Shown here: piece after piece, positions 1,442 to 48,592 of the stretch
Numbering within the stretch: the first letter of the stretch is position 1
Layout: each line of letters begins with the position of its first letter
Assembly (NCBI RefSeq): GCF_004296575.1
Contig: NZ_SAYT01000001.1
Location: 776,856 to 840,855 of the forward strand
DNA length: 64,000 nucleotides
Origin: Dyella amyloliquefaciens
GTDB taxonomy: Bacteria; Pseudomonadota; Gammaproteobacteria; Xanthomonadales; Rhodanobacteraceae
Direction of reading: 5' to 3'
Translations under genes and position numbers: made by a program
Notes under the pieces: generated by a model
The model's input: only the letters and a program-made list of their open reading frames with translations
Databases searched by the model: none
What the model was told of the DNA's origin: nothing

Positions 1442-4174
<2,733 letters not shown>

Positions 4175-4184
4175 TACGAAAAAA

Positions 4185-4207
4185 CCCCGCCTTGGCGGGG
4201 TTTTTTT
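4185..4207 (+). terminator. Rho-independent terminator of secA
   Basis: An arm CCCCGCC (4185-4191) pairs with GGCGGGG (4194-4200), followed by seven T. It begins 10 bp after the secA stop codon. Confidence 0.9.
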
Positions 4208-4228
4208 ATGGCGCCCGGTTTCTTCTTT

Positions 4229-4333
4229 TGTAGGAGCGCACCCAGTGCGCGATCAACGCAGCGTTGCTATCCGTTGGCCGGGCTACTGCGTTGCCGCTTC
4301 GTAGGCTTTTCGCGCACTGGGTGCCCTCCTACA
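4229..4333. repeat. REP-like inverted repeat pair
   Basis: TGTAGGAGCGCACCCAGTGC at 4229-4248 continues into GCGA and is matched at 4310-4333 by its reverse complement with one base changed, giving 24-bp arms around about 57 bp. The same arm occurs alone at 23974-23997 and as a pair, with a CCCTGTG core, at 34070-34179. Such extragenic palindromes are common in Xanthomonadales and Pseudomonas. It lies between the convergent secA and apaH genes. Confidence 0.8.
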
Positions 4334-4357
4334 AAAAAGCGGGGCGAGATGGTGGCG

Positions 4358-5209
4358 TCAGTCACCGCCGCCAGGCGGACGCTTGCGATAAGGCTCCGCG
4401 TCGACGGCGATATAGCGCGGCTCTTCCTCGTCGAGGCGTAGTGCGGTGAGCTGGCCGCCCCACACGCAACCCGTGTCGATCGCATGGATGCCCAGGCCGG
4501 CGAACCGACCGAGCGCAGACCAGTGGCCGCACACGATGCGCGTCTCGCGGCGACGCATGCCGGGCACTTCGAACCATGGATACATGCCCGGCTTCTGCGT
4601 GCCGGGAATGCCCTTGCTTTCGAAGTCGATGCGCCCCTGGATATCGCAATAACGCATGCGCGTCAGCGTGTTGATCGAGGCGCGCATGCGCTCGATGCCC
4701 TGCAGGCGACCGTTCCAGGCGGCGGGGCGATTGCCAAACAGATTCTTCAGCAGGCGCGGGTGACGCGGACTGCCGAGTTCGCGCTCGATTTCCTGCGCGG
4801 AGCGCTGCGCCTGGCGTAGCGTCCAAGAGGGCGCGAGTCCGGCATGGACCATGGTCCAGTTGAGCTGCTCGTCATGATGCAGCAGCTTCTGCGAACGCAG
4901 CCATTCCATCAACACGGGCGCATCGTCCGCGAACAGCACCTCGCGCAGCTCGGGATTCACCTTTGACTGCGCTTCGGGACGCCGCTGCGCGATCGCCAGC
5001 AGACTGAGGTCGTGGTTACCCAGCGTCACCACGGATTGCTCGCGCAGGCTGTGGATCAGGCGCAGGGTCTGCAGGGACTGGCCGCCGCGATTGACGAGGT
5101 CGCCACAAAACCACAGGCGATCACTGGCGGGGTCGAAACGAAGCTTGTCGAGCAGGCGCTGGAGTTCGGGATAGCAGCCCTGCACATCACCGATCGCATA
5201 GATAGCCAT
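4358..5209 (-). CDS. apaH: Symmetrical bis(5'-nucleosyl)-tetraphosphatase ApaH
   Basis: A 283-residue metallophosphatase that splits Ap4A into two ADP and removes NpnN caps from RNA. The metal-binding motifs are all seen: GDVQG (7-11), GDLVNRG (36-42) and GNHD (64-67), with further His residues in VHAGLAP and GHWSALG. The length matches the family. It is the last gene of the lptD operon. Its ATG (5207-5209) overlaps the apaG stop by one base, so translation is probably coupled. Confidence 0.96.
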   Translation of the reverse strand: MAIYAIGDVQGCYPELQRLLDKLRFDPASDRLWFCGDLVNRGGQSLQTLRLIHSLREQSVVTLGNHDLSLLAIAQRRPEAQSKVNPELREVLFADDAPVLMEWLRSQKLLHHDEQLNWTMVHAGLAPSWTLRQAQRSAQEIERELGSPRHPRLLKNLFGNRPAAWNGRLQGIERMRASINTLTRMRYCDIQGRIDFESKGIPGTQKPGMYPWFEVPGMRRRETRIVCGHWSALGRFAGLGIHAIDTGCVWGGQLTALRLDEEEPRYIAVDAEPYRKRPPGGGD

Positions 5210-5592
5210 CAGTGCAGCGTTCGCGGAATGGACAAGGTGAACGCCGGGATCGCCGCTTCGAAGTGGGTGCCGTCATCGGCCAGCATCTGGTAGCTGCCCT
5301 CCATGATGCCTACCGACGTTTCCAGCACGGCGCCCGAGGTGTACTCGTAACGATCGCCGGGGCGCATCCACGGCTGCTCGCCGACCACGCCCTCGCCAGT
5401 GACTTCTTCCACCTTGCCGTTGGCGTCGGTGATGACCCAGTGGCGCGACAACAGGCGTGCAGGTACATCGCCCGCGTTGTGCAGGGTGATGGTGTAGGCG
5501 AAAACGTAGCGGTTGTCGCCGGGACGGGATTGGTCGGGGACAAAGCGGGGTTCCACCTGCACGTCGATCGTGTAGGAAGATCTGTCGTTCAT
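5209..5592 (-). CDS. apaG: ApaG (DUF525) protein
   Basis: A 127-residue all-beta protein of the ApaG/DUF525 family, with the typical strands [12 protein letters not shown], the motif [11 protein letters not shown], and the C-terminal [20 protein letters not shown]. The molecular role in bacteria is not settled; the fold resembles fibronectin type III, and homologous domains occur in eukaryotic F-box proteins. The reading frame stays open far upstream. The start at [11 protein letters not shown] gives the family length and leaves an 89-bp gap to rsmA, although no strong ribosome site is visible. Its TGA shares a base with the apaH ATG. Confidence 0.93.
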
Positions 5593-5681
5593 GCCGCGAT
5601 TGTACGGGTTGTCGCATCCCATGGGGGAAGCTTGCATGCGTCGGGCTGAATCGGGGCGCGATGCGCGCGGACCCTTCGTAT

Positions 5682-6479
5682 TCACTCCACGACGACACGC
5701 GCGAGGCGCACGTAATCCTGGGGCGAAAGCGTTTCTGCGCGCGCCTTGGGGTCGACATCGGCGGCCATGATCGCCTGGGCATCCATGACATGCTTGAGCG
5801 CGTTGCTCAGCGTCTTGCGACGCTGTGCGAACGCTGCCTTCACGATCGCGTAGATGCGCTCGGGGTCGGCATCCGGCAACTGGGCGGGCTCCAATGGCAC
5901 CAGGCGCACCACGGCCGAATCGACCTTCGGCGGCGGCCGGAACGCGCCCGGTGGCACCACGAACAGTGGTTCCACGCGACAGGCCAGTTGCAGCATCACG
6001 GAAAGGCGTCCGTACACCTTGCTGCCCGGCTCGGCCGCCATGCGGTCGACCACTTCCTTTTGCAGCATGAAGTGCATGTCCTGGATCGCACGCGCATGTT
6101 CCACGCAATGAAACAGGATCGGGCTGGAGATGTAATACGGCAGGTTGCCGGCGACGCGCAGCCGCTCCACGCCATGCCGATGCGCGAGCGCCGTGAAGTC
6201 CACCTTCAGTACGTCCGAGTGGATGATGCTCAGCTCTCCCACGCTGGCGGCGCGCGCCTGCAGGTCGGGGATGAGATCGGTATCGAGCTCGATGGCCGTG
6301 AGTTTCTGCGCCGCTGCGAGCAGGGGCAGGGTCAGTGCGCCTTCGCCGGGGCCGATCTCGACCACGAAGTCGTCCGCGCGCGGCGAGATCGCGCTGACGA
6401 TCCGCTCGATGTAGCGCTTCTCGTGCAGGAAGTGCTGGCCGAAACTCTTCTTGGGGCGGGCGTTCATCGGGGGAGACAT
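5682..6479 (-). CDS. rsmA: 16S rRNA (adenine(1518)-N6/adenine(1519)-N6)-dimethyltransferase
   Basis: A 265-residue KsgA/RsmA that dimethylates two adjacent adenines in helix 45 of 16S rRNA late in small-subunit assembly. It shows KSFGQHFL near the N-terminus, the SAM-binding [10 protein letters not shown] (41-50), an acidic AIELD motif and the catalytic NLPYYISSP (112-120). The start is the ATG at 6477-6479, with GAGG ten bases upstream; a TTG three codons earlier and an ATG four codons later are alternatives. It sits in the conserved order pdxA-rsmA-apaG-apaH. Loss of rsmA gives kasugamycin resistance in other bacteria. Confidence 0.96.
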
Positions 6480-6516
6480 AGGCTGCAAACCTCGGTGAAG
6501 TGGATCGTGTCGTTCT

Positions 6517-7518
6517 TCACGACATGTCGGCGCGGCGACGGATCAGGTCCAGCGCCATATTCGCCGCGGCGATCAGGCTGGACGGGTCGGCCTTGCCGGT
6601 CCCGGCAAGGTCGAGCGCGGTGCCGTGATCGACCGAGGTGCGGATGAAGGGCAGCCCCAGCGTGAGGTTGACCGTGCGGTCGAAGGCTTCGCTCTTGAGC
6701 ACCGGCAGCGCCTGGTCGTGGTACATGGCGAGCACCGCGTCGTAGCGTCCGCGTTGGGCCGGTACGAAAGCGGTGTCAGCCGGGAGCGGTCCCACCAGCG
6801 ACATGCCCTCGCTGCGCAAGGCGTCGAGCAGGGGGATGATCGTGTCCAGTTCCTCGCGCCCCAGGTGCCCGCCTTCGCCCGCGTGGGGATTGAGGCCGAG
6901 CACGCCGATACGCGGCTCGGCGAAGCCGTACTTGGCGCGCAATTCATGGTGGACGATGCGCAGCACGCGCCCGAGCACCTCGCGGGTGATCGCCGCGGGT
7001 ACGGCGGACAGCGGGAGATGCGTGGTGGCGAGCGCCACCCGCAGCTCGGGGCTGGCAAGCATCATCACTACGTCGGCCTGGGCACGCTCGGCGAAGAACT
7101 CGGTGTGACCGCTGAAGGGGATGCCGGCTTCGTTGATGGACGCCTTCTGCAGCGGTGCCGTAACGATGGCGTCGTAACGGCCCGCCATGCAGCCATCGGC
7201 GGCCTCGGCGAGCGTGGCAAGCACATGGCTGGCATTGCGCGGGTCGGGGTGGCCGGGCTGCTCTGTGGCGGCCAGTGGCACGTGGTGAACGCGCAGCTGG
7301 CCCGCCGCGCGCCGATCCGTCGCCGTGCCGTCGTCATCGATCAGCTCGATGTCCAGCCCACAGCGCGCTGCGGCGCGGCGTAGCAGTGCGCGGTCGCTCA
7401 CCGCAACGAAATTGGCCGCCAGCGGAGTGGCGGCCAATCGGATGAGCAGTTCGGGACCGATCCCCGCCGGCTCACCCGCGGTAACGGCCAGCCGGGGCAG
7501 GGCGCGGTCAGCGTTCAA
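6517..7518 (-). CDS. pdxA: 4-hydroxythreonine-4-phosphate dehydrogenase PdxA
   Basis: Catalyses NAD-dependent oxidation of 4-phosphohydroxythreonine in the DXP-dependent pathway to pyridoxal phosphate. Family motifs are present: VTAGEPAGIGPELL at the N-terminus, the metal-ligand His in SGHTEFFAERA, GLNPHAGEGG, and the second ligand region MYHDQALPVLK. The start is uncertain. A TTG at 7516-7518 has GAGG five bases upstream, begins 8 bp after the surA stop and gives 333 residues, close to E. coli PdxA. A GTG at 7564-7566 would add 16 residues and overlap surA by 41 bp. Both are non-ATG, so inefficient initiation or coupling to surA is likely. Confidence 0.93.
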   Translation of the reverse strand: MNADRALPRLAVTAGEPAGIGPELLIRLAATPLAANFVAVSDRALLRRAAARCGLDIELIDDDGTATDRRAAGQLRVHHVPLAATEQPGHPDPRNASHVLATLAEAADGCMAGRYDAIVTAPLQKASINEAGIPFSGHTEFFAERAQADVVMMLASPELRVALATTHLPLSAVPAAITREVLGRVLRIVHHELRAKYGFAEPRIGVLGLNPHAGEGGHLGREELDTIIPLLDALRSEGMSLVGPLPADTAFVPAQRGRYDAVLAMYHDQALPVLKSEAFDRTVNLTLGLPFIRTSVDHGTALDLAGTGKADPSSLIAAANMALDLIRRRADMS

Positions 7519-7525
7519 TGCGGCC

Positions 7526-8875
7526 TCAGGAGGACTTGCCGCCCTGCGGCTGGCTGCCCGGTTCACGCAGCTCGGGCACCAGGATGTTCACGTAAGCGCT
7601 GGAACGCATCTCGCGCAGGTAGTCGTCGTACACCTGCTCGGCCTTGCGGTTACCGATGGCCTGGCGCGCCTGGTTGCGCTCCATTTCATCGGTACGGTCG
7701 CTCTGGCGGGTGCCAAGGCGCTCCAGGATGTGCCAGCCCACTTCGCTCTGGAAGGGCTGCGTGATCTGGCCGTCCTTCAGGTTGGCCAGCTGTTGGCCGA
7801 TGCTCGAACCCCAGTCGCCCTGGGCGAACCAGCCCATGTCGCCGCCGTTGTTGGCGGTGGTGTCGTCCTTGGAGTTCTCCTTCGCCAGCTTGGCGAAGTC
7901 CTCATGCTTGTTGACGATACGGTTGTACAGGTCTTCCGCCTTCTGGTGGGCCTGTTCCGGCGTCAGCAGTTCGCTGGGCTTGATCAGGATCTGGCGGGCG
8001 TGGAACTCCTGCACGACCTGGCGGCTCGGGGTGCGCTGCTCGATCAGCTTGAGGATGTGAAAGCCGGTGGGGCCGCGCATGGCCGGAGTGACGTCGCCCG
8101 CCTTCATGTTGGACACGGCGTCGGCAAAGGCCGGCGGGATTTCGTCCAGGCGGCGCCAGCCGAGGTCGCCGCCGTCCAGGGCATCCTGGCCGTCGGAGTA
8201 GCGGATGGCCGCGGCGTGGAAATCCATGCCGCCCTTGATGGCGTCCACGGCCTGGGTGGCCTTGTCCTGGGCGGCCTTGATGTCCGCGGCGCTGGCGCCG
8301 GCCGGCAGGCTGACCTGGATGTGGGCCAGGTGAACTTCGCCCGCCTTGTAGGTCGGGCTGGCCAGCATGTTGTTGATTTCGCTGTCGGTGATGCTGACCT
8401 GGTCGCGCACCACGCTGTCGTGCAGGCGCTGCGCTACCAGCTGGTCACCCAGCTGATGGCGGAAGGCGGCCCAGCTGGAACCGTCCTGCTCGACGGCCGC
8501 ACGCAACTGGTCCGACGACATGTGGTTCTGCTGCGCCACGGCGTTCACGGCCTGATCGACGTCGGCGTCCGAGACACGGATGCCCTGGTCGTCGGCGCGC
8601 TGCACCTGCAGGCGCATCAGGATCAGGCGATCCAGCACCTGACGCTGCAGCACGTCCATCGGCGGCAACTGGCCCGGGTTGCGCGCGTACTGCTGCTGGA
8701 CGGAACGTACCGCCTCGTTCAGCTCGCTCTGCAGGATCACGCCCTCGTCCACCACCGCCACGATACGGTCAAGCGGCTGCTTGCCTGTCGCCGCTTGCGG
8801 CAACAGCTGGGCATGGGTGGGCAGGGCGGTCGCGGTGGCGATCGCGAGCAGGAACAACGCCAAAGGCTGCTTCAT
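7526..8875 (-). CDS. surA: Periplasmic chaperone/peptidyl-prolyl isomerase SurA
   Basis: A 449-residue protein with a signal peptide (cleavage near residue 22, PTHA|Q), an N-terminal chaperone domain (about 33-170), two parvulin/PpiC domains (about 175-280 and 290-390) and the C-terminal helix that packs back on the chaperone core. Parvulin signatures are readable, for example GGDLGWRRLDEIPPAF and GGDMGWFAQGDW. SurA escorts outer-membrane proteins to the BAM complex. It lies directly downstream of lptD, one of its known clients in E. coli, in the same operon. Confidence 0.96.
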   Translation of the reverse strand: MKQPLALFLLAIATATALPTHAQLLPQAATGKQPLDRIVAVVDEGVILQSELNEAVRSVQQQYARNPGQLPPMDVLQRQVLDRLILMRLQVQRADDQGIRVSDADVDQAVNAVAQQNHMSSDQLRAAVEQDGSSWAAFRHQLGDQLVAQRLHDSVVRDQVSITDSEINNMLASPTYKAGEVHLAHIQVSLPAGASAADIKAAQDKATQAVDAIKGGMDFHAAAIRYSDGQDALDGGDLGWRRLDEIPPAFADAVSNMKAGDVTPAMRGPTGFHILKLIEQRTPSRQVVQEFHARQILIKPSELLTPEQAHQKAEDLYNRIVNKHEDFAKLAKENSKDDTTANNGGDMGWFAQGDWGSSIGQQLANLKDGQITQPFQSEVGWHILERLGTRQSDRTDEMERNQARQAIGNRKAEQVYDDYLREMRSSAYVNILVPELREPGSQPQGGKSS

Positions 8876-8913
8876 CAGTCGGGGGCCTTCAATCGCCAGA
8901 GGCGACAGGGAAG

Positions 8914-11373
8914 TTATTGATAACCAAGAATACCATTACGCAGGGAGCTTTCCGACTGACCGGTGAACCCGCCCATGCCCTTGAACTCGACTTCCAGCAT
9001 GATTGCCGTGTTGGCCGAGCCCAGCTGCGTCGAGTAGTTATAGGTGTTCACGTAGTGCCGGCCGATCAGGCGCAGTGCCACGCAGCAGCTGTCGTACTCC
9101 ACGCCCGCCAGGGCCTCCACCGTCTTCTTGTCGAGCACTGAATAGGTCCAGTGGCCGAGCAGGCGCCAGCGATCGGAAATGGGATAGACCACCGAGGCGT
9201 CATATTGTTCCAGCAGGGGCGTTTCCGTACCCGGCTGGCGACGATAACGGTAGGAGAAGTTGATGATGCCGTCGGTCTTGATGCGCTTCTGCAGGGTCAG
9301 GGCGCCCAGGTCGGTCAGGCTGGTATTGGGGTTCCACTGGTACTGCGAGGTCAGGCGCCAGTCGTCGCTGAGCTGGGTATTGAGCTCGACCACATAGTCC
9401 GAGCCGGACCAGTCGGTGGCCGGCGAGACCGTGCTCTGGCCATTGGGCAGCTGCACTTGCTGCTGGGTGAAGTAGCGGATCTGGCCGAAGGTGGCCGACA
9501 GCCGTTCCACGCCGTTATCGTCGAGCAGGCGGGAGGTGAGCGCGGCACTCAGGTTGTTCGCGTTCATCTGACGGTCCGCGCCCGAGTACGTGTTCGTAGT
9601 GAATAGCTCCCAGGTGTCGAACGACATCAGGTTGGTATCGAACAGCGGAATGTTGTCCTGGTTGCGATACGGCACGTACAAGTAGTACAGGCGCGGTTCC
9701 AGCGTCTGTGTGTAGTTGGTGCCGAACAGTGACGTGCTGCGATCGAAGACCAGGCCGCTGTCCACGCTCACGACCGGCAGCGAGCGGCTGGGCGAGTTGC
9801 TGGTGAACGGTGAGGCTTGGTTCGGCACAAGCGGGCCCTGGTAACCGTATTGCTCGTAGTTGCCCTGCAGGTCATAGGCGGTATAGCGGTAGGCGACCCT
9901 GGGCTTGACGAACCATGCGGCGCCGCGGAAGTCCGCCGCGATATACGGGTACAGGTCCAGGCGGTTGCCTTCCACCACGTCTTCCTTGCGGAACGCGACG
10001 GCCTCGGTGTTCGCGCCGACATCCAGCCAGCGGTTGATCGGGTAGTCCACGTTGAAGGCGCCGCGCGGCCAGCGCTTGTACTGCACCACGCTGTCGGGCA
10101 GCGAAGGGTCCACGTTCTGGTAGTAGTCCGCACCCAGTTGGGCGTTCCAGTAGGCGCTGCCCCAACGGCCAGCACCATTGATATAGGTACTGGAGCCGAG
10201 CGTGCCGATGGCCGAGGTGTACAGGTCGTTGCCGAAGTCGCGCAGGTAGTTGCGATCAGAGGCGCGATTGATGGAGGCGCTGAGTGACCACGGGCCATAC
10301 AGGTGCGTGATGTCGTTGTACTTCAACAGCCAGCGATTATCGCCCTGAGTGTTCTCGGTGCTGTCCGGGTCCGACTCGCCGCGGTCATTGGGCAGGAATT
10401 CGAAGTTCAATTGGCCGAGGCTGCCCGGGACCAGGTAGCGAAATTCACCGCCCAGCATCACGCCGCGATCGGTATAGATGCGCGGATCCAGCGTCGCGTC
10501 ATAGTTCGGCGCAAGGTTGAGGTAGTACGGCGCGCTGACCGTGAAGCCCGAGCGGCTGGAGTTGCCGATGGTCGGGGTCAGGAAGCCGGTCTTGCGTCGA
10601 TCGTCGATCGGGAACGAGAACGTGGGCAGGTAGAAAAACGGCACGCCATAGACCGACATGGTGGCGTCATGCGCGACGCCTTCGCCGGTCTCCTTGTCCA
10701 TCCGGATGTCCTTGCCCTTGATCTCCCAGATGTGATCGCCCACGTCGCAGGTGGAGTAGGTGGCCTGCGTGTAACGACTGCGCTGGTCGTCCAGCATCTG
10801 GCCCTGCTGGGCGACGCCGTTGCCGCGGTTGGTCAGCATCTGATAGCTGACGTTGTCCGCGATGGCCGTACTGGCGGTCTGGTTGCCGCGGATATGGTCC
10901 GCCGACATCAGCTGGCCGGCTTCCTGGTAGCGCACGTTGCCGCGGGCGTCGTAGTCGGTGGTGTCGTCGTTGTAGTCCGCGACGTCCGCCTGCATGCGCT
11001 GGTCGGCGCGGTCCACCTTCACCTCGCCTTCCAGGTGATAGACGGTCTGGTTGGAACCGTCCACGCGCTGGGCGGTGACGTAGGTGTTGGAGGTGTCGCG
11101 TACCGAGCTGTCCTTGCTGAGTGTCGGGTCGTAGAACGACAGCATGGCGTTGGGGCGGCACATGGCATAGTTCACCGGACGCGTCGGGCAGCGGAACGCG
11201 CCCAGCGGACAGTTGGCTATGGCCGGCGGCGGCGTGTTGCTGGCCGGCGCCGTGGGCGCGGGCTGGTCCGAGGTCGACTGGGCCTCCACCGGGCCACCGA
11301 ACAGGGCGAGCGCGGCAGCGACCGCCAGCAGGCGGCGCGGGGGCAGGTGGCGCGAAGTCGGCTTGGGCGTCAC
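8914..11373 (-). CDS. lptD: LPS-assembly outer-membrane protein LptD
   Basis: An 819-residue protein: signal peptide ([15 protein letters not shown]), an OstA/LptA-like jellyroll (about 100-230, with [20 protein letters not shown]) and a large C-terminal beta-barrel rich in aromatic strands. With LptE it inserts lipopolysaccharide into the outer leaflet. Cysteines near the N-terminus ([14 protein letters not shown]), one in STCDVGD and a CC pair near the C-terminus would allow the disulfide exchange known for LptD. The start is a GTG at 11371-11373 with no clear ribosome site; no alternative Met precedes the signal peptide core. First gene of the six-gene operon, divergent from msrB. Confidence 0.95.
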
Positions 11374-42585: not shown

Positions 42586-44400
42586 TCAGAACTTGCTGTG
42601 CTCCACATCGCGTTCGCGATGCATCAGGGTCCACTCGGCATGCTCGGTCAGGGCTGCGTCGCCCAGTGCGAGGAGGATTTCGCGTTGCTTGGCGGGATCG
42701 CTGGTGCGATCGAGCGCGGCGCGCGCGCTGGCGAAGATGCGTTGCATGAAGCGGTACTGGCGGATCAACTCCTTGTCGGCCTTGCGATACGCATAGGCCT
42801 CGCGCACGGCGGCGACGATGGAAAGTACCGCCATCATCATGACCATGGTGGTCTTGACGCTCTCGGGAAGATGCAGCGCGAATATCGCCAGGAACACGCT
42901 GATCGAGATGCCACCCCACAAGCTGATCATGCCGATGGTCTCGGTGACATGGTGCAGGCCGGTGCGCTCGATGGTCTTGCGCTGGAAGTAGTACAGCTGG
43001 CCGCTCTTGCCCGATTCGCCCACCCACTCGTCGATGACCTCGGATAACGCCGACGCGCGGGGAGTGTCGACGTTGGGCAAGGGATCGACGCCAGCCACGC
43101 GCATCATGTGGCGGATCCAGCCCAGCTCGATGTTCTGCTTCTGCAGGAAGTTGTCATGGGCGAATTCGTGTTCGCCTGTGGCCGATATGCCGGCATGGCG
43201 CCAGTAGGCTTGCACGCGCAGGCCTTCGGCGAGCGCCCGGTAATCAAGGTACTTGCGGTGCCAGCCGCGATGTCGCGCGAGTATCGCGATCAGGGCGCCG
43301 AGTCCAAACAGCAGCAGGAACGTATAGATGAGGAAGTCCTGTGCGGACATGTGCGCGTAGAAGGTGAAGGCAATGCCCATCAAGGCTGCCAGCACGTAGG
43401 TGAGCCTGAGCGCGAGCAAGACGCGCTTCTGGAAATGGATTGCCAGCCAGTCCGCCGCGCGGAAGATGCGCGCGAGTGCGCTGCCATTGGTGAGTATGCT
43501 GTCGGGATCGTCGTCCGGTTCTGCCGCGATGTCATCCGCATACTTCGTGCAGTCGGCGTTGAACTCCGACATGTGTGCGAACATCTGGCAGAACTCGGGT
43601 GGAGGCGTGCGATCGGTGGTGGTGAAGTCACCGCAGCGCCAGTATGTCTGCAGTGGTTGCAGGCCTGGCGCGACGTCGCCGTGGTCACCCTCGCGCGAAC
43701 AGACGATATGGTAGAGCAGGCGCTCATCGCCGCTGCCCAGGACGTGCCTGGCTTCGCGGTGACGCTCGACGAGGCCGGGCAAGGTGCCATTAAGATGGTA
43801 GTTGACGACCTGTGCCGTGCCTCCGAGCCGCCCCGAGTCCTTGCCGTCCCAGATGGCGAGCAGGATGTGGCAGTGACTGGCGATGAATACGCCTGCCTTG
43901 GCGTACTGCCGGTCGCGCGATGGTCCCGGCAAGGCGATCGCGTGATGCGATGGCCCGCGTGGCAACGGGAGTGTAAGCACGTGGGCCTGTTCGCACAGGG
44001 CCTCGAAGCGCGCGCGCGCGGAAGGAGCGGGAAAGTCGTCGAGATAGAGCTCTGCAGGTAGCGGCAAGGGGGCGATCAATCGTGCACCGGCTTCCAGGGC
44101 GACATGTGCGACCAGCTGGTCGCCGCCTTCGGCCAGCGCGGAGAGCACGCATAGCGGCAAGCCCGGGAATTCCTGTCGCAGCATCGCGAAGAACGCGGTC
44201 ACCCGCTCGCGTATGGGCTCGATCTCGGAGGCTGAGATGTTGCGGTGGCTGGTGATGCCGACGACCAGAGGCGTCATGGTGGCGCCGGGTTGTATCGCCG
44301 ACGCCGGATAACTTGTCTGGCCAGATGACGGGCCATGCATCGCAGGTGGGTTCATCGACACGTCCTGCGATTCCACATCCGAGTTGTCCCTGCGATGCAT
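42586..44400 (-). CDS. SLOG domain protein with four membrane helices (SLATT-like)
   Basis: A 604-residue protein. Residues 43-205 look like a SLOG/LOG-type Rossmann fold: PLVVGITSHRN, LCVLSALAEGGDQLVAHVAL, ARLIAPLPLP and HILLAIWDGKDSGRLGGTAQ. SLOG domains bind nucleotide signals in immunity proteins such as ThsA. After a linker come helices at about 328-348 and 355-374, followed by YLDYRALAEGLRVQAYW, the kind of motif that follows the helix pair in SLATT domains; a second helix pair (487-509, 516-534) is followed by a similar basic helix. SLATT proteins are predicted pore-forming effectors. The start at 44400 has AAGGAG five bases before it. It follows small gene D by 19 bp. Domain names are my reading, without a profile search. 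Confidence 0.72.
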   Translation of the reverse strand: MHRRDNSDVESQDVSMNPPAMHGPSSGQTSYPASAIQPGATMTPLVVGITSHRNISASEIEPIRERVTAFFAMLRQEFPGLPLCVLSALAEGGDQLVAHVALEAGARLIAPLPLPAELYLDDFPAPSARARFEALCEQAHVLTLPLPRGPSHHAIALPGPSRDRQYAKAGVFIASHCHILLAIWDGKDSGRLGGTAQVVNYHLNGTLPGLVERHREARHVLGSGDERLLYHIVCSREGDHGDVAPGLQPLQTYWRCGDFTTTDRTPPPEFCQMFAHMSEFNADCTKYADDIAAEPDDDPDSILTNGSALARIFRAADWLAIHFQKRVLLALRLTYVLAALMGIAFTFYAHMSAQDFLIYTFLLLFGLGALIAILARHRGWHRKYLDYRALAEGLRVQAYWRHAGISATGEHEFAHDNFLQKQNIELGWIRHMMRVAGVDPLPNVDTPRASALSEVIDEWVGESGKSGQLYYFQRKTIERTGLHHVTETIGMISLWGGISISVFLAIFALHLPESVKTTMVMMMAVLSIVAAVREAYAYRKADKELIRQYRFMQRIFASARAALDRTSDPAKQREILLALGDAALTEHAEWTLMHRERDVEHSKF

Positions 44401-44419
44401 GGCAGCTCCTTGCGGTCGG

Positions 44420-44803
44420 TCAGTTGTTCTTGATCGATGGGTTGGTGGCGGTTCCGACGCCGGTGGTGGCGATTGGATTGCTTTGATAGGTGTTGCCGCC
44501 AACAGCGACCGTCAATATGTAAAACCATTCACCCGTGGTGTTGCTGCTGTTGTTGAGGTCGGCCATGGCCATCGAATTTCTGGCCGGAGAAAATGTAGGC
44601 GCCCCAAAAATGCCGCTCCGTGGCGGAGTGCCGGCCCAGGTCAAGGACACGATGCTTCCCGTCGCGGCATTGCCGTTGAGGTGCCAGTCGACGCTCTGCA
44701 ATGCTTCGCTGCGCGCCACGTGATGGGCGTTGCCCGTCTGGTCGATATCGACGGTCCACGGATTCGTGCTCTCGTTCAGGGTCACTCTCAGGTTGTTGGC
44801 CAC
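44420..44803 (-). CDS. Small protein D with NPSIKNN tail
   Basis: A 127-residue protein of no known family. GTG start at 44801-44803 with GAGGAG six bases upstream; alignment with C sets the same start. It begins VANNLRVTLNESTNPWTVDI, then has WHLNG, SGIFG, MADLNN, TTGEWFY and ends TATNPSIKNN. These features recur in C (most similar) and A. No signal peptide or membrane helix. The composition (short strands, Asn/Thr/Gly turns) suggests a small beta-sandwich. It lies between C and the SLOG gene and is a tandem duplicate of C. Confidence 0.78.
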   Translation of the reverse strand: MANNLRVTLNESTNPWTVDIDQTGNAHHVARSEALQSVDWHLNGNAATGSIVSLTWAGTPPRSGIFGAPTFSPARNSMAMADLNNSSNTTGEWFYILTVAVGGNTYQSNPIATTGVGTATNPSIKNN

Positions 44804-44869
44804 AGTTTGCTCCTCATTTCCGGATGTAAAGGGACCCGTGTTAGGCAATGCTTCCAGGCGGAATGCTCG

Positions 44870-44923
44870 CTACTGCGGATCGCTCCTGGCTGGCGCTGCC
44901 GGCACGCGCTGCTGGAATGCGGT
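44870..44923 (-). pseudogene. Duplicated remnant of the TIR gene 3' end
   Basis: Read on the reverse strand this segment still encodes AFQQRVPAAPARSDPQ and a stop, against AFQQRLQAALARNDPQ and a stop at the true end of the TIR gene (45389). The DNA downstream (44820-44870) also matches the region after the TIR gene (45330-45388), including GGCGGAATGCTCG and ACTGCGGATCG. It is the scar of the tandem duplication that produced gene D. Confidence 0.8.
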
Positions 44924-45321
44924 CAGTTGTTCTTGATCGATGGGTTGGTGGCGGTTCCGGTGATGGCAACGGCGCCGCTGTAGTAAATGGTGCCGTTTGC
45001 GACGAGCTGGACCCCTATCTGGTAATACCATTCGCCCGTGGTGTTGCTGCCGTTGTTGAGGTCGCTGAGAGTCATCGATTTCCCGTTCGGAGCGATGACG
45101 AATGGCCCGAAAATGCCGGAGGGTGGCGGGTTGAACGTAGGTGGATCGTTGAGCCAGCTGCAGCTCACGATCCTTCCGGACGCCGCATTTTCTGTGAGCT
45201 GCCAGGTGATGGTCTGTTGGTTGTTGCCGCGTGGTACATGATTGGCATTGTCCTTCTGGCTGACATCCACGAGCCACGGGCTCGTGGTTTCGTCCAAAGT
45301 CACGGAAAGGTCGTTGGCCAT
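44923..45321 (-). CDS. Small protein C with NPSIKNN tail
   Basis: A 132-residue protein, closest relative of D: MANDLSVTLDETTSPWLVDV, then NANHVPRG, WQLTEN, SGIFGPF, MTLSDLNN, TTGEWYYQIGV and a final TATNPSIKNN. The start has GAGGA seven bases upstream. The last 39 bp of coding sequence are identical in C and D, pointing to recent duplication or gene conversion. No signal peptide. Function unknown; its place between the TIR and SLOG genes suggests it works with them. Confidence 0.8.
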   Translation of the reverse strand: MANDLSVTLDETTSPWLVDVSQKDNANHVPRGNNQQTITWQLTENAASGRIVSCSWLNDPPTFNPPPSGIFGPFVIAPNGKSMTLSDLNNGSNTTGEWYYQIGVQLVANGTIYYSGAVAITGTATNPSIKNN

Positions 45322-45388
45322 CGTCTGGTCCTCAAGTCAGGATGCGGAAGGAACCCTGTTGGGCAGCTACTACTGGGCGGAATGCTCG

Positions 45389-47578
45389 TTACTGCGGATC
45401 GTTCCTGGCGAGCGCCGCTTGCAGGCGCTGCTGGAACGCCGCATTGGCGGGGTAGTCGATGTCGTGCTGTTTGAGCGTGACGAGAAGATCGAGATCGCGG
45501 TAGCCCGAATCCCATAGCTGCTGCACCAGCGGTGCTGCTTCGGGGCCACGGCCGAGGCTGAGCAAGGTGTCGACGCGCAAGGCGATCAGGCGTGGATCAC
45601 CCGCGCCGCTGGAGACGGCGGTGACGTCCTTGAGCACGTCTTCGCGCCACTTGCTTGCCTTGTCGGCATCGTTGGTAGTGGCGGCGAGCAGCAGGCGTAC
45701 GGTTGCCGTGTCCAGCAGCAACGTGCGCTCTGCAGGCTGGTTTTCATGCAAGGGTGAAAGCACGGCAAGCGCCTTGGTGGCCTGGTCATGCGCCTGGTCG
45801 GGGTTGCTGGCGAGTGACTGATTCGCCTGTTCCACCTGCGCCTCGGCGAAGTCCTGCTGCCACTCTGTATTGCTCGGATCGGTGTGTGTCATGTCGCCGA
45901 AGATCTTCAGCGCGCGGTTGTTCAGTTCCGTCGCCGTGGCGTCGTCGCCGGATAGTCGGCGCAGTCGCGCAAGTTGTGTGGAATACAGCGCCACCTTTGC
46001 ATGGAAGCTCGTTTCGTTGGGCTCGAACTTTGCGAGCTCTATGGCTCCATCAACGGCTTGCTGGAGATGCTCGCTGCCCGCGTTGACATCGCCACCCAGC
46101 GCCATGGTTCGCCCGAGGATGGCGCGCACGCGCACCATGTTTTCCTTCTGGTCGTTGTTTTTAGGATCGCTCTCGCTCAGCGCGGTCTCGATCGCGTCGT
46201 CGGCACGGTATTCCGCGATAGCAGTGACAAGGTCGCCCTGCATCAGCGCCATCTTGCCGAGATTGTTGTGTGCTTCGCCCAGCAGCTCCTGCCAGTCCGT
46301 CTTGGGGTTCTTGCCGCGCACCAGCTCACGGCAGTGCGCAAGCATGCTCTGATACTGCGCGGTGGCTTGATCGAGCTTTCCCTGTGCCTCCAGCACGTGG
46401 CCAAGGTCGTCGTCCACGGTCGCCCATTGCTGGATGAATTCCTTGTCGGACGCGGAAGTCAGTGGAGTGCGCCGCAGGATGTTCTGCGCCATCGCGAATT
46501 GCTCCTCTGCCGAGGGAAGATTGCCGCGGTACCAGTCGGTCATGCCGATGAACGTGACGATGCGCGAGTAGGCCACCTGCCTGGCGACATCGGCGGGTGC
46601 ATGCTGCGCGAGCCCCCCGGAGATTTTCGCGGCGGCCTGATAGGACTGCATGGCGGTGTCGAGATGGCCCTGACTGAGACGCACACCACCGATCTTTTCC
46701 AGCGCCTTGGCGCGCTGCTCGAGCGAGACGTCGGTGACGTCGTCGCTCGGCAGTGACTGGAAATAAGCCATGGCGCGGTCATCGACGGCTTCCATGATGT
46801 CCAGCCGTTGCACCTGGCCCAGCTTGTCGTTGAGGTCGCCGAGCATGAAGCCGACCAGGCTTTCGGCCTGGTTGCGCTCGCGCTCCGCCACACGCTGCGC
46901 CTGGACGGCGATGACGGCGAGCGTCGATGTCATCAGGGTGATGGCGACGGCAACGGCGGCGATCGCTGCGAGCCGGCGCTGATGGCGTTGCTGCTCTCGT
47001 TGCTTGAGCTTGTCGAAACCGATGTCGAGCATCCCGGCAATCAGTTTCAGCTTGGCATTGGTCCTGCCGTCCTTGCCGGGACGCGCATCGGCCGCGATGG
47101 GTTCGGTGCGCTGCTCGGACAAACCATCGGAGCCATCCCATTCGAAGCGCAGCGCCCGTGCGAAACACTCTTCGGCTTCGCGTCCGGCGACCTCGCTGGT
47201 GTTGGGTTCACCGCCGACGATCAGGCAGAAAATGCGATCGGAATGCCCAAGCCGCTTGAACGCCAGCACTTCCTCGTTGACCCAGTGCGACCGGGCCGAC
47301 TGCGGGGAGCAGATCACGACCAGGTTGGCCGATTCGGACAGTGCTTCGTTGACCTTGCGGCCCAGGTCGGTCGCACTGGCCAACTCGTCGCGGTCGCGGA
47401 AGACCGGCAGCAGGCGCTTGGGCACTACGCCGGCAGGCGTGACCTGTCCGACCAGCCGTTGCGGAACCCGGTAGCTTTCCAATGAGCGGTGCAGCCAGTC
47501 GGCCCAGGCTTTGTCCTGGTGGCTGTAACTGATGAATGCGCGATACCGAAATGCCGGCACGCCGGATTCCTGCGCCAT
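45389..47578 (-). CDS. TIR domain - transmembrane - TPR protein
   Basis: A 729-residue protein. Residues 10-135 are a TIR domain: YRAFISYSHQDKAWADWLH, LLPVFRDRDELA, NLVVICSPQSARSHWVNEEV. E103 in WVNEEV aligns by eye with the catalytic glutamate of NAD-cleaving TIR domains (WVHKE in SARM1). A membrane helix lies at about 202-225, then a segment with LVGFMLGDLNDKLGQVQRLD, common in TIR/STAND-TPR proteins, then TPR-like helices to the C-terminus. It probably senses or scaffolds through TPRs and may produce an NAD-derived signal. The start at 47578 gives a compact N-terminus; GGAG is 11 bases upstream. It is separated from the small genes B (288 bp) and C (67 bp). Confidence 0.85.
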   Translation of the reverse strand: MAQESGVPAFRYRAFISYSHQDKAWADWLHRSLESYRVPQRLVGQVTPAGVVPKRLLPVFRDRDELASATDLGRKVNEALSESANLVVICSPQSARSHWVNEEVLAFKRLGHSDRIFCLIVGGEPNTSEVAGREAEECFARALRFEWDGSDGLSEQRTEPIAADARPGKDGRTNAKLKLIAGMLDIGFDKLKQREQQRHQRRLAAIAAVAVAITLMTSTLAVIAVQAQRVAERERNQAESLVGFMLGDLNDKLGQVQRLDIMEAVDDRAMAYFQSLPSDDVTDVSLEQRAKALEKIGGVRLSQGHLDTAMQSYQAAAKISGGLAQHAPADVARQVAYSRIVTFIGMTDWYRGNLPSAEEQFAMAQNILRRTPLTSASDKEFIQQWATVDDDLGHVLEAQGKLDQATAQYQSMLAHCRELVRGKNPKTDWQELLGEAHNNLGKMALMQGDLVTAIAEYRADDAIETALSESDPKNNDQKENMVRVRAILGRTMALGGDVNAGSEHLQQAVDGAIELAKFEPNETSFHAKVALYSTQLARLRRLSGDDATATELNNRALKIFGDMTHTDPSNTEWQQDFAEAQVEQANQSLASNPDQAHDQATKALAVLSPLHENQPAERTLLLDTATVRLLLAATTNDADKASKWREDVLKDVTAVSSGAGDPRLIALRVDTLLSLGRGPEAAPLVQQLWDSGYRDLDLLVTLKQHDIDYPANAAFQQRLQAALARNDPQ

Positions 47579-47866
47579 GACGAGTCGCACTCCAGTAGCA
47601 GGCAGCGCATTCCCTTGCCGGGAAGTCCACATTCATGGGCGGCGGTCACACTTGGCAGGCACGATGCACGATCGATACCGGCTCCCCTTCTCGCCAGCCT
47701 AACACGGTGTTCGAGAGCTTATGGACGGCCAGATGGCCGATTGGGTGGCCATATGGCCGACGATCATGGGCGTTCTCCTGGGCAGCAAGCCTGGCGTCAG
47801 CCATGCACGCCGCCCACGCGTGTGCACATCCGGGCGGCGGGATGTGCTTTCCGAGTGTGCGGTGGA

Positions 47867-48052
47867 TCAGTTGTTCTTGATGCTGGGGTTGCGGGCCGGG
47901 TCCGCACCGGATGGCAGAGGCGGGGCCGGTGCGGGTGCCGGGGCCGGCGCGGGAGCGGGTGCGGGAGCAGGGGCTGGCGCCGGAGACTGTCCCATCGCAT
48001 AAGCAAAGCCCGGGTCGAGTGCCCATTGACCCTCGATGTCTATACGGTACAT
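47867..48052 (-). CDS. 61-residue Ala-Pro-rich peptide B with NPSIKNN tail
   Basis: A short protein: a 22-residue start MYRIDIEGQWALDPGFAYAM, a run of about eleven Ala-Pro pairs encoded by a near-hexameric DNA repeat (47922-47982), and a C-terminus GADPARNPSIKNN. GGGAGA lies six bases before the ATG. The tail is identical to those of C and D although the rest is unrelated, so the tail appears to be a portable element on a rigid Ala-Pro stalk. Coding status is supported by the tail, the ribosome site and position 30 bp after gene A. Confidence 0.68.
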   Translation of the reverse strand: MYRIDIEGQWALDPGFAYAMGQSPAPAPAPAPAPAPAPAPAPAPPLPSGADPARNPSIKNN

Positions 48053-48082
48053 GTCGTTCTCCCAAGGAATCAGGGTGGCTGG

Positions 48083-48592
48083 TCAGCGATTCTTGATCGT
48101 TGGATTGGTGGCTGCTGAGATCCCGTAGCCGTCACCTGGGCCAGGGATGGGGCCGGCAATAGTGGAGCCGCGCGTGGTGGCCGCGAGCATGCGGCTGCTG
48201 CGCAATGGTTTGATGCGGGCAGGATAGGGCGGCTGGAAGCGGGTGCGATAGACCACGCCGTCAATCGTGGCGCTGAGCCGGTAGTACCAGGTGCCGACCT
48301 TCTCCTCGAAGTTGAATTGGTCTTCCAGGGTGATGGTCTGCCCGCGATCGCCGACCTTGGGCGGACCGAAGATGCCGGGGAATGGTGGGCTTATCCAAAG
48401 AAAGCCCGGTGATATCGCGTCGTCCATCGCATTGAAGTGACCGGACGTCCCATGGTGCTGCAGCTGCCAGCGGATGGGCTGGGGCCGGGGCATCCGCTTG
48501 AGTCGGGTGGTTTCCCTGGGGACATCTACATAGAGGTAGGGCGGCGTGCCTCGCGGCACGATCAACCTCACGGTAATGGCGTGTACGGTCAT
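48083..48592 (-). CDS. Small protein A with NPTIKNR tail
   Basis: A 169-residue protein, first gene of the group. AAGGAG lies six bases before the ATG. It has no signal peptide. Shared features with C and D are WQLQHHG, FPGIFGPP, TITLEDQF, VGTWYYRLSA and the tail AATNPTIKNR. It carries an insert of about 35 residues between the domain and the tail (PPYPARIKPLRSSRM and on). The N-terminus MTVHAITVRLIVPRG is strand-like. I find no known family. Its divergence from C and D shows that the domain family is older than the local duplication. Confidence 0.78.
   Translation of the reverse strand: MTVHAITVRLIVPRGTPPYLYVDVPRETTRLKRMPRPQPIRWQLQHHGTSGHFNAMDDAISPGFLWISPPFPGIFGPPKVGDRGQTITLEDQFNFEEKVGTWYYRLSATIDGVVYRTRFQPPYPARIKPLRSSRMLAATTRGSTIAGPIPGPGDGYGISAATNPTIKNR

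What the first reader, a model, noticed from the sequence alone, without database searches (positions are those of the whole stretch)
42586..48592. Candidate undescribed TIR-SLOG system with four tail-bearing small proteins
Six co-directional genes encode small proteins A and B, a TIR-TM-TPR protein, small proteins C and D, and a SLOG protein with four membrane helices. Known: in Thoeris a TIR enzyme makes a cyclic ADP-ribose isomer that a SLOG domain (ThsA) senses. Seen here: a TIR domain with the putative catalytic Glu, a SLOG-like fold and a SLATT-like membrane part. Inferred: the TIR signal opens a SLOG-gated membrane effector, and the four small proteins act as sensors, inhibitors or adaptors. 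I know of no described system with this composition.
Basis: partly seen in the sequence, partly recalled or inferred. Interest (0 to 1): 0.92.

Follow-up and report, generated by a model that had tools for sequence, protein, structure and literature searches.

The report
TIR receptor with tail-tagged partner proteins
A soil bacterium carries a likely immune or stress circuit in which a membrane TIR enzyme, small proteins that share one short end-tag, and a single nucleotide-sensing membrane protein go together; the shared tag looks like a plug for the TIR receptor and seems not to have been described.

Summary
Six co-directional minus-strand genes encode two tail proteins, a TIR-TM-TPR protein, two more tail proteins and a SLOG protein with four membrane helices. 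The TIR (catalytic Glu in 93 of 93 relatives), the SLOG fold (YpsA, Z 16.1) and a DUF4231/SLATT-type membrane part are confirmed. The core works like Thoeris by composition but is not a Thoeris member: the effector has no SIR2 or macro domain. In 20 Dyella genomes SLOG and TIR-TPR genes occur in the same 14, also when unlinked; some genomes have two or three TIR units for one SLOG. The new part is the tail: (N/D)PxIxN at the end of Ig-like, disordered and Sec-leader proteins, in 96 of 6725 short frames beside these genes against 2 of 18752 farther away. Tails mostly stay with the TIR gene when the SLOG is elsewhere, and tail divergence follows the TPR region rather than the TIR domain or SLOG. 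Best reading: the tail docks its carriers on the TPR receptor, which signals through an NAD-derived nucleotide to one SLOG-gated membrane effector. NAD cleavage, tail binding and phage defence are untested.

The parts
48083..48592 (-). A: Ig-like (by homology to C) tail protein, 169 aa, with a long variable linker of roughly 50 residues before tail ...ATNPTIKNR
   Evidence: ORF; aligns with C and D; conserved in G005, G007, G017
47867..48052 (-). B: 61-aa PA-repeat (looks disordered) protein ending ...RNPSIKNN
   Evidence: similar gene with tail SNPLIKNR in three other Dyella genomes
45389..47578 (-). TIR-TM-TPR receptor, 729 aa from the conserved ATG at 47578 (747 aa if ATG 47632 is used): TIR, one membrane helix near residues 204-225, TPR region
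   Evidence: Pfam TIR_2, ThsB_TIR, TPR_12; Glu of W-V-x-x-E invariant in 93 of 93 relatives
44923..45321 (-). C: Ig-like tail protein, 132 aa, tail ...TNPSIKNN
   Evidence: AlphaFold2 mean pLDDT 89.6, tail strand 128-131; VIA best match SO1698 Z 10.2
44420..44803 (-). D: Ig-like (by homology to C) tail protein, 127 aa from ATG (142 from TTG 44848), tail ...TNPSIKNN; paralogue of C
   Evidence: 55% identical to C
42586..44400 (-). SLOG-4TM (SLOG + two SLATT-like pairs of helices) putative membrane effector, 604 aa
   Evidence: YpsA Z 16.1, DprA 12.5, ThsA 7.4; DUF4231 above cut-off; NCBIfam SLATT_3 29.4 bits, below its cut-off of 45

Best explanation
A two-layer signalling circuit. Input: a membrane-anchored TIR-TPR receptor whose TPR lobe recognises the short C-terminal tail (N/D)PxIxN carried by small proteins encoded next to it; the carriers (Ig-like, disordered, or exported) are its ligands, co-receptors or inhibitors. 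Output: on triggering, the TIR domain turns NAD+ into a nucleotide signal that binds the single SLOG protein of the cell, whose four-helix membrane part then damages or opens the inner membrane. Several receptor-plus-tail units can feed one SLOG. Shown here: gene composition, folds (predicted), co-occurrence, tail-TIR linkage. Inferred: NAD cleavage (intact catalytic Glu), SLOG sensing (YpsA-like fold), membrane effect (SLATT likeness), tail-TPR binding (linkage and co-divergence).
For: SLOG and TIR-TPR in the same 14 of 20 Dyella genomes, including unlinked cases such as G018, about 235 kb apart; 9 of 12 SLOG genes without a TIR found in the flank have a TIR-TPR gene elsewhere in the genome. 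Eight loci with two TIR-TPR frames over 1.5 kb, each with one SLOG; G001 has three TIR genes and one SLOG. Other SLOG-SLATT genes sit by other TIR types: Caballeronia plasmid, L223 and L095, and a SIR2-TIR protein in L111. Tail pattern: 96 of 6725 near versus 2 of 18752 far frames; GTDB loci not looked at before the pattern was set, 52 of 3626 versus 1 of 8027; scrambled patterns near versus far: reversed 0 and 5, swapped 3 and 3, shifted 5 and 0. The tail is the most constant part of 48 Ig-like carriers (invariant M1, Y100, P127, N131) and occurs on unrelated carriers. Of 24 strict tail matches in 20 Dyella genomes, 21 lie within 1 kb of a TIR-TPR gene, one by a TIR remnant, two look like chance. 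Partial Mantel: tail~TPR given SLOG 0.488 (0 of 500 permutations as high); tail~SLOG given TPR 0.024; tail~TIR domain given TPR 0.002. The signal peaks at residues 421-480 in the TPR region.
Against: Topology: the membrane helix has the more positive flank on the TIR side in 89 of 93, so the TPR should be periplasmic, whereas the Dyella carriers show no leader; carriers with Sec leaders or lipoboxes (judged by eye and hydropathy) exist in relatives. The AlphaFold2 model lets the tail of C dock back on its own domain, so there the tail may be just a last strand. The TPR diverges faster than the TIR domain, which can inflate its correlation, and the test ignores the tree. 28 of 89 TIR loci have no tail on a TIR's strand by the pattern, though some of these carry Ig-like proteins with variant ends. 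Three SLOG genomes have no TIR-TPR gene. Of 11 SLOG relatives drawn from outside the near order (L223-L233) only one has the TIR-TPR type; two sit by patatin-like genes. One carrier, L081, ends NPRIKST, without the last Asn. No biochemical or phage data.
Confidence: 0.5

Rival explanations
1. The tail is the last strand of the Ig-like fold and works as an exchangeable strand: tails of B-type disordered proteins insert into the Ig-like domains of A, C or D, so the small proteins assemble with each other (perhaps even with bond rearrangement, as in the DP-EP protein SO1698), not with the TPR.
For: AlphaFold2 gives residues 128-131 as a strand after a linker (119-123) under pLDDT 50; the block 121-130 averages 69 and 131-132 average 92. 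Best structural match is SO1698, whose deposited mutants cluster at S114-Q118; Pfam calls PF08985 DP-EP (that SO1698 belongs to it is recalled).
Against: Loci L081, L082, L139 and L129 show only a disordered tail carrier and no Ig-like one; for two of these genomes (G265, G152) the Ig-like profile found nothing genome-wide. No invariant or near-invariant Lys or Asp column in 48 carriers. The residue before Pro is Asn in 49 of 87 tails. In protein A a long linker separates domain and tail.
Confidence: 0.25
2. The tail is a processing or secretion tag: the conserved end is cut off as a peptide signal or toxin, as proposed for FxSxx-COOH proteins.
For: FxSxx-type precursors also have variable bodies and conserved ends and go with TIR/TPR proteins (PMC7159879 section 24). 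Small Sec-leader carriers resemble pro-peptides.
Against: I recognised no metallopeptidase or radical-SAM gene beside the loci listed, by eye and from partly printed proteins only. Many carriers are folded proteins of about 130 aa without leader. The motif is not always at the very end (L093).
Confidence: 0.12
3. An ordinary Thoeris-like circuit in which the tail proteins are fast-evolving accessory genes with no direct part in signalling.
For: Some TIR-SLOG loci lack any tail gene by the pattern, for example Luteibacter L083-L087.
Against: The tail is kept on unrelated carriers and follows the TIR gene at sites away from SLOG: a tail frame beside the TIR in 7 of the 12 loci (L246 and L247 were already known, L252 and L257 are one contig).
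Confidence: 0.13

Closest known systems
Thoeris (ThsB TIR, ThsA SIR2-SLOG or TM-macro)
   Same: TIR with catalytic Glu; separate SLOG protein of YpsA/DprA fold (ThsA Z 7.4); one effector may be served by several TIR genes (Thoeris: PMC11204291 introduction passage)
   Different: No SIR2 or macro domain in the effector; TIR is a membrane TPR receptor; tail proteins are added; no defence data
SLOG/SLATT nucleotide-signal systems predicted by Burroughs, Aravind and colleagues
   Same: SLATT as a nucleotide-responsive pore predicted beside TIR genes and in related conflict systems (passages; the 2015 paper itself is recalled and not held)
   Different: Here SLOG and two 2TM units are one protein, with a TIR-TM-TPR receptor and (N/D)PxIxN carriers; I found no description of these in the searches made
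DP-EP / SO1698 of Shewanella (PF08985)
   Same: SO1698 is the best structural match of C (Z 10.2, rmsd 3.0, 108 residues); self-cleavage at Asp-Pro near the C-terminus is recalled, its paper was not held
   Different: No sequence match; no conserved Lys/Asp; Asn-Pro in most tails; tail also on disordered proteins
FxSxx-COOH peptide systems with TIR/TPR proteins
   Same: Variable small proteins with a conserved C-terminal motif, coupled to TIR/TPR effectors (PMC7159879 section 24)
   Different: Other motif; no radical SAM, peptidase or vWA gene recognised by eye beside the loci

Membership tests
Thoeris | TIR (ThsB) with catalytic Glu | tested here: met
   Glu column E in 93 of 93; Pfam ThsB_TIR 1.1e-8; that this Glu is the catalytic one is recalled from SARM1/ThsB
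Thoeris | Effector is SIR2-SLOG or TM-macro (ThsA) | tested here: not met
   No SIR2 or macro match by Pfam at E up to 1; model is SLOG plus helices
Thoeris | SLOG binds a cADPR isomer | not testable with these tools
   Fold relation to ThsA only (Z 7.4, 7.2)
Thoeris | One effector, one or more TIR genes | tested here: met
   Eight two-TIR loci with one SLOG each; G001 three to one
Thoeris | Protects against phage | not testable with these tools
   No assay
SLOG superfamily (YpsA-like) | SLOG fold with conserved nucleotide-site residues | tested here: met
   YpsA Z 16.1; H52 R53, G193 G194 T195 invariant in 23 diverse members; their role in binding is recalled
SLATT / DUF4231 | Profile above curated cut-off | tested here: inconclusive
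   DUF4231 29.0 bits over its cut-off of 24.7; Pfam SLATT_3 23.6 under 26.3; NCBIfam SLATT_3 29.4 under 45
DP-EP (PF08985) | Pfam profile match | tested here: not met
   Not among the families matched by the 48 carriers at E up to 10; no match in G000
DP-EP (PF08985) | Catalytic Asp and Lys, Asp-Pro bond (recalled) | tested here: not met
   No invariant or near-invariant Asp/Lys column in 48 carriers; Asn before Pro in 49 of 87 tails
FxSxx-COOH systems | C-terminal FxSxx motif | tested here: not met
   Tail is (N/D)PxIxN
FxSxx-COOH systems | Neighbouring radical SAM and metallopeptidase | tested here: inconclusive
   None recognised by eye among genes called; no family search of the neighbours

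The most novel reading that the evidence does not exclude
(N/D)PxIxN is a receptor-addressing tag: a short C-terminal plug that lets folded, disordered and exported proteins of unrelated origin dock on the TPR lobe of a TIR enzyme, so that bacteria build many interchangeable sensors onto one TIR-SLOG alarm by adding a tag to a new protein.
Probability: 0.4. Interest if true: 0.87.

Novelty: new variant of a known kind. Interest (0 to 1): 0.74.

Why it matters
How bacterial TIR proteins notice their trigger is largely open. A conserved tag that ties proteins of different origin to a TIR-TPR receptor would be a direct handle on that step, testable with one synthetic peptide and one purified TPR domain. 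The genome-wide pairing of this receptor with one SLOG membrane protein also predicts an NAD-derived signal and an effector that can be tested separately.

Tried and rejected
Chance tails: rejected by near/far counts, unseen loci and scrambled patterns (the shifted pattern gave 5 near and 0 far, so a small excess is not specific). Tail as part of the SLOG: rejected, since tails stay with TIR genes far from any SLOG; exception: L078 has a tail gene beside a SLOG with no TIR found in its flank, its TIR-TPR gene lying elsewhere in G255. SLOG fused to a further domain (L091 941 aa, L116 765 aa): rejected by eye, the extra N-termini look like over-long starts. Mobile origin: no SLOG match in 50,697 phage records; 9 plasmid records with 26-30% of the query covered; C has no plasmid match; two weak viral contigs. 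Within-locus likeness of tails on unrelated carriers was weak evidence: 4.5 of 7 positions within loci against 4.1 to 4.2 between loci of similar SLOG identity.

Sequence searches for the small proteins gave nothing convincing. Weak matches set aside: B to biotin-carrier and ZorF profiles (low complexity), single carriers to Ig-like or other Pfam domains at 0.0047 or worse, C to tau repeats at 3e-5 with no single significant stretch. The Foldseek hits to PD-1 and antibody domains (none at E 0.001 or better) were taken as generic Ig-like likeness. Literature listings: 'NPSIKNN' 0 papers (the only search for the tail itself); SLOG with SLATT 2 papers; SLATT with TIR 7; DUF1888 one paper on vesicles, listing only; SO1698 0 papers. 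Not held: Burroughs 2015 and the DOI I tried for the SO1698 paper.

Weak points: loci were made non-redundant by identical sequence only, and relatives are not independent. The pattern was fitted on the earlier loci; only the GTDB subset was unseen. The gene caller was my own and missed genes in low-GC loci; six-frame searches were used for counts. The general TIR profile was built partly from the loci it was used on (L095, L111, L115, L116); L095 and L111 are confirmed by Pfam, L115 and L116 were recognised by eye. The 14-of-20 co-occurrence ignores phylogeny. One search found Ig-like tails in 10 of 250 genomes while SLOG was in 65 of 250: many loci lack Ig-like carriers of this profile.
Full report
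WHAT IS THERE. The six genes exist as described. They run on the minus strand from 48592 to 42586 with short gaps. The genome belongs with Dyella: contigs of genomes of the same genus group (G005, G011, G017) have the exact lengths of named Dyella records. A, C and D are homologous; B is a proline-alanine repeat with the same end. All four end in NP[ST]IKN[NR].

THE TIR PROTEIN. Pfam gives TIR_2, ThsB_TIR and TPR_12. In 93 relatives the Glu of the W-V-x-x-E segment is Glu in all 93, and the membrane helix has its more positive flank on the TIR side in 89 of 93. That predicts TIR inside and TPR outside the inner membrane. The equivalence of this Glu with the SARM1 catalytic Glu is recalled, not computed.

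THE SLOG PROTEIN. AlphaFold2 on 23 diverse relatives gave mean pLDDT 80.2. VIA-align 2 gives YpsA Z 16.1 over 162 residues, DprA 12.5, and ThsA 7.4 and 7.2 (the last two are at the level where the tool warns of common arrangements). DUF4231 covers residues 320-399 above cut-off; SLATT profiles are below theirs. Hydropathy shows four membrane segments in two pairs. So 'SLOG plus two SLATT-like units' is well supported for SLOG and fair for SLATT.

THE SMALL PROTEINS. The model of C (mean pLDDT 89.6) is an Ig-like sandwich whose tail, after a poorly ordered linker (119-123 under 50), returns as a strand at 128-131. Its best structural match is SO1698 of Shewanella (Z 10.2, rmsd 3.0, 108 residues, 22% identity), with deposited mutants around D116-P117. 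From memory, SO1698 is the DUF1888 or DP-EP protein that cuts itself at Asp-Pro and links a Lys to the Asp; the paper was not held, and Pfam calls PF08985 DP-EP. In our 48 carriers no Asp or Lys column is conserved, so self-cleavage is not supported, but the shared architecture may explain why a Pro-x-Ile strand closes this fold.

THE TAIL IS MORE THAN THE FOLD. The same end is found on proteins without an Ig-like domain by profile: PA-repeats, acidic proteins of about 49-60 residues that look disordered (L082, L139, L149, L089, L109; L081 has a variant NPRIKST without the last Asn), small Sec-leader proteins (L125, L153, L154), and, in other families, longer Sec-leader or lipobox proteins ending DPRIKNGGAD or DPMIENEG (leaders judged by eye and hydropathy). 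In 87 tails assigned to a TIR gene, the last Asn of the motif is Asn in 87, the Ile is Ile in 79, and the residue before Pro is Asn in 49 and Asp in 38. The pattern allowed Asp at the last position, so its constancy there is not built in; Asn/Asp before Pro was required by the pattern, and variants such as QPSIKNN, TPTIKNN and HPSIKNT exist. Short frames within 1.5 kb of SLOG or TIR and on the same strand match in 96 of 6725 cases, farther ones in 2 of 18752; in the GTDB loci not seen before, 52 of 3626 against 1 of 8027; scrambled patterns near and far: reversed 0 and 5, swapped 3 and 3, shifted 5 and 0.

WHO GOES WITH WHOM. In 20 Dyella genomes SLOG is in 14 and TIR-TPR in the same 14; with random placement such an exact match is 1 in 38,760 (my arithmetic, ignoring kinship). 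The strict tail pattern gives 24 matches: 21 lie within 1 kb of a TIR-TPR gene, one (G011:C13) beside a TIR remnant, and two (G012, G013:C3) look like the same short chance frame in two genomes. Where TIR units lie apart from SLOG (in G018, G001, G002, G255) a tail gene sits beside the TIR; L078 in G255 has one more tail gene beside its SLOG. Of 113 SLOG loci, 85 have the same TIR-TPR type, 9 another TIR, 7 I judged cut by a contig end, and 12 have none found in the flank; 9 of these 12 genomes have a TIR-TPR gene elsewhere. Of the 12 TIR-TPR loci returned by that call, 7 show a tail frame beside the TIR (two of the 7 were known before, and two of the 12 are one contig). Among 89 loci with TIR, 61 have a tail on the strand of a TIR, so 28 do not; eight loci have two TIR frames over 1.5 kb and one SLOG each.

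TAIL AND TPR DIVERGE TOGETHER. Over 87 tails, tail distance correlates with TPR distance at 0.664, TIR-domain distance 0.501, SLOG distance 0.515. Partial values: tail~TPR given SLOG 0.488 (0 of 500 permutations as high), given TIR domain 0.503; tail~SLOG given TPR 0.024; tail~TIR given TPR 0.002. In 60-residue windows the value is 0.45-0.46 in the first four windows (TIR domain to membrane helix) and peaks at 0.70 for residues 421-480; SLOG windows of divergence 0.55-0.60 reach 0.39-0.48 against 0.63 for a TPR window at 0.58. The test does not model the tree, and a faster-evolving region can look better; it supports, and does not prove, TPR as the partner. Within-locus likeness of tails on unrelated carriers was only slightly above that of loci of similar kinship.

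BEYOND THE FAMILY. By profile SLOG-4TM occurs in 65 of 250 genomes of the order, 5 of 321 of the class draw and 11 of 349 of the phylum draw, members of the own order included. Of 11 such loci drawn from these two calls (L223-L233) one (L224) has the TIR-TPR type, with a tail ending DDPRIRNRPV; L223 has two TIR-TPR genes of another type (one checked by Pfam); L229 and L231 sit by patatin-like genes (patatin and RyR confirmed for L229); for the others no TIR-TPR type was found, other TIR types were not sought, and L225 and L226 are contigs under 5 kb. Elsewhere: TIR beside DUF4231-SLOG on a Caballeronia plasmid, TIR, caspase and TIR around a bare SLOG in Rhizobium, a SIR2-TIR protein and nSTAND1 in L111. 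The link of this SLOG type to NAD-acting enzymes is thus wider than the tail, but outside the order not general.

MECHANISM. The most likely reading: receptor TIR-TPR, tail-tagged partners, NAD-derived signal, one SLOG-gated membrane effector. The many-to-one copy number resembles Thoeris, where one ThsA may go with several ThsB (PMC11204291, introduction passage). The unsolved point is topology: leaderless carriers would not meet a periplasmic TPR unless exported in an unknown way or unless the helix does not cross as predicted.

KNOWN OR NEW. The core is a variant of predicted TIR/SLOG/SLATT signalling (passages seen) and works like Thoeris without being one. FxSxx-COOH systems are the nearest precedent for small proteins with a conserved end that go with TIR/TPR proteins (section read). 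I found no description of the (N/D)PxIxN tail, but only searched for the tail itself; the other nine searches were for domains and relatives, and only open-access papers are covered.

Noticed in passing
L111 (G262): 3468-9799: SLOG-4TM gene directly after a SIR2-TIR fusion protein and an nSTAND1 ATPase protein: the same effector with another NAD-acting input.
   Followed up: partly
L229 and L231 (G586, G633): Distant SLOG-SLATT gene overlapping a patatin-like gene, with a RyR-domain protein upstream in L229.
   Followed up: no
L245 (Rhizobium bangladeshense plasmid p3): 3617-5986: Tight four-gene run annotated TIR, caspase, hypothetical (the SLOG match), TIR, found by SLOG similarity.
   Followed up: no
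L153 7657-7854, L154, L125 7309-7503: Small Sec-leader proteins with a mature part around ISNWFACAIGSQSC followed by the tail; they look like secreted peptides.
   Followed up: no
G011:C13 (L027: 9828-10761): Tail gene beside a short TIR fragment (145-residue frame), apparently a decayed receptor unit whose tail gene is still intact.
   Followed up: partly
G000:C16:122951-123304 (L032: 8070-9620): The window's genome has one more TIR protein (227 aa), directly after a 287-aa protein that looks membrane-bound by eye, unlike the TPR type.
   Followed up: no
L093: 9919-10542: A carrier in which the motif HDPVIRN is followed by a hydrophobic C-terminal stretch, so the motif need not be at the very end.
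   Followed up: no
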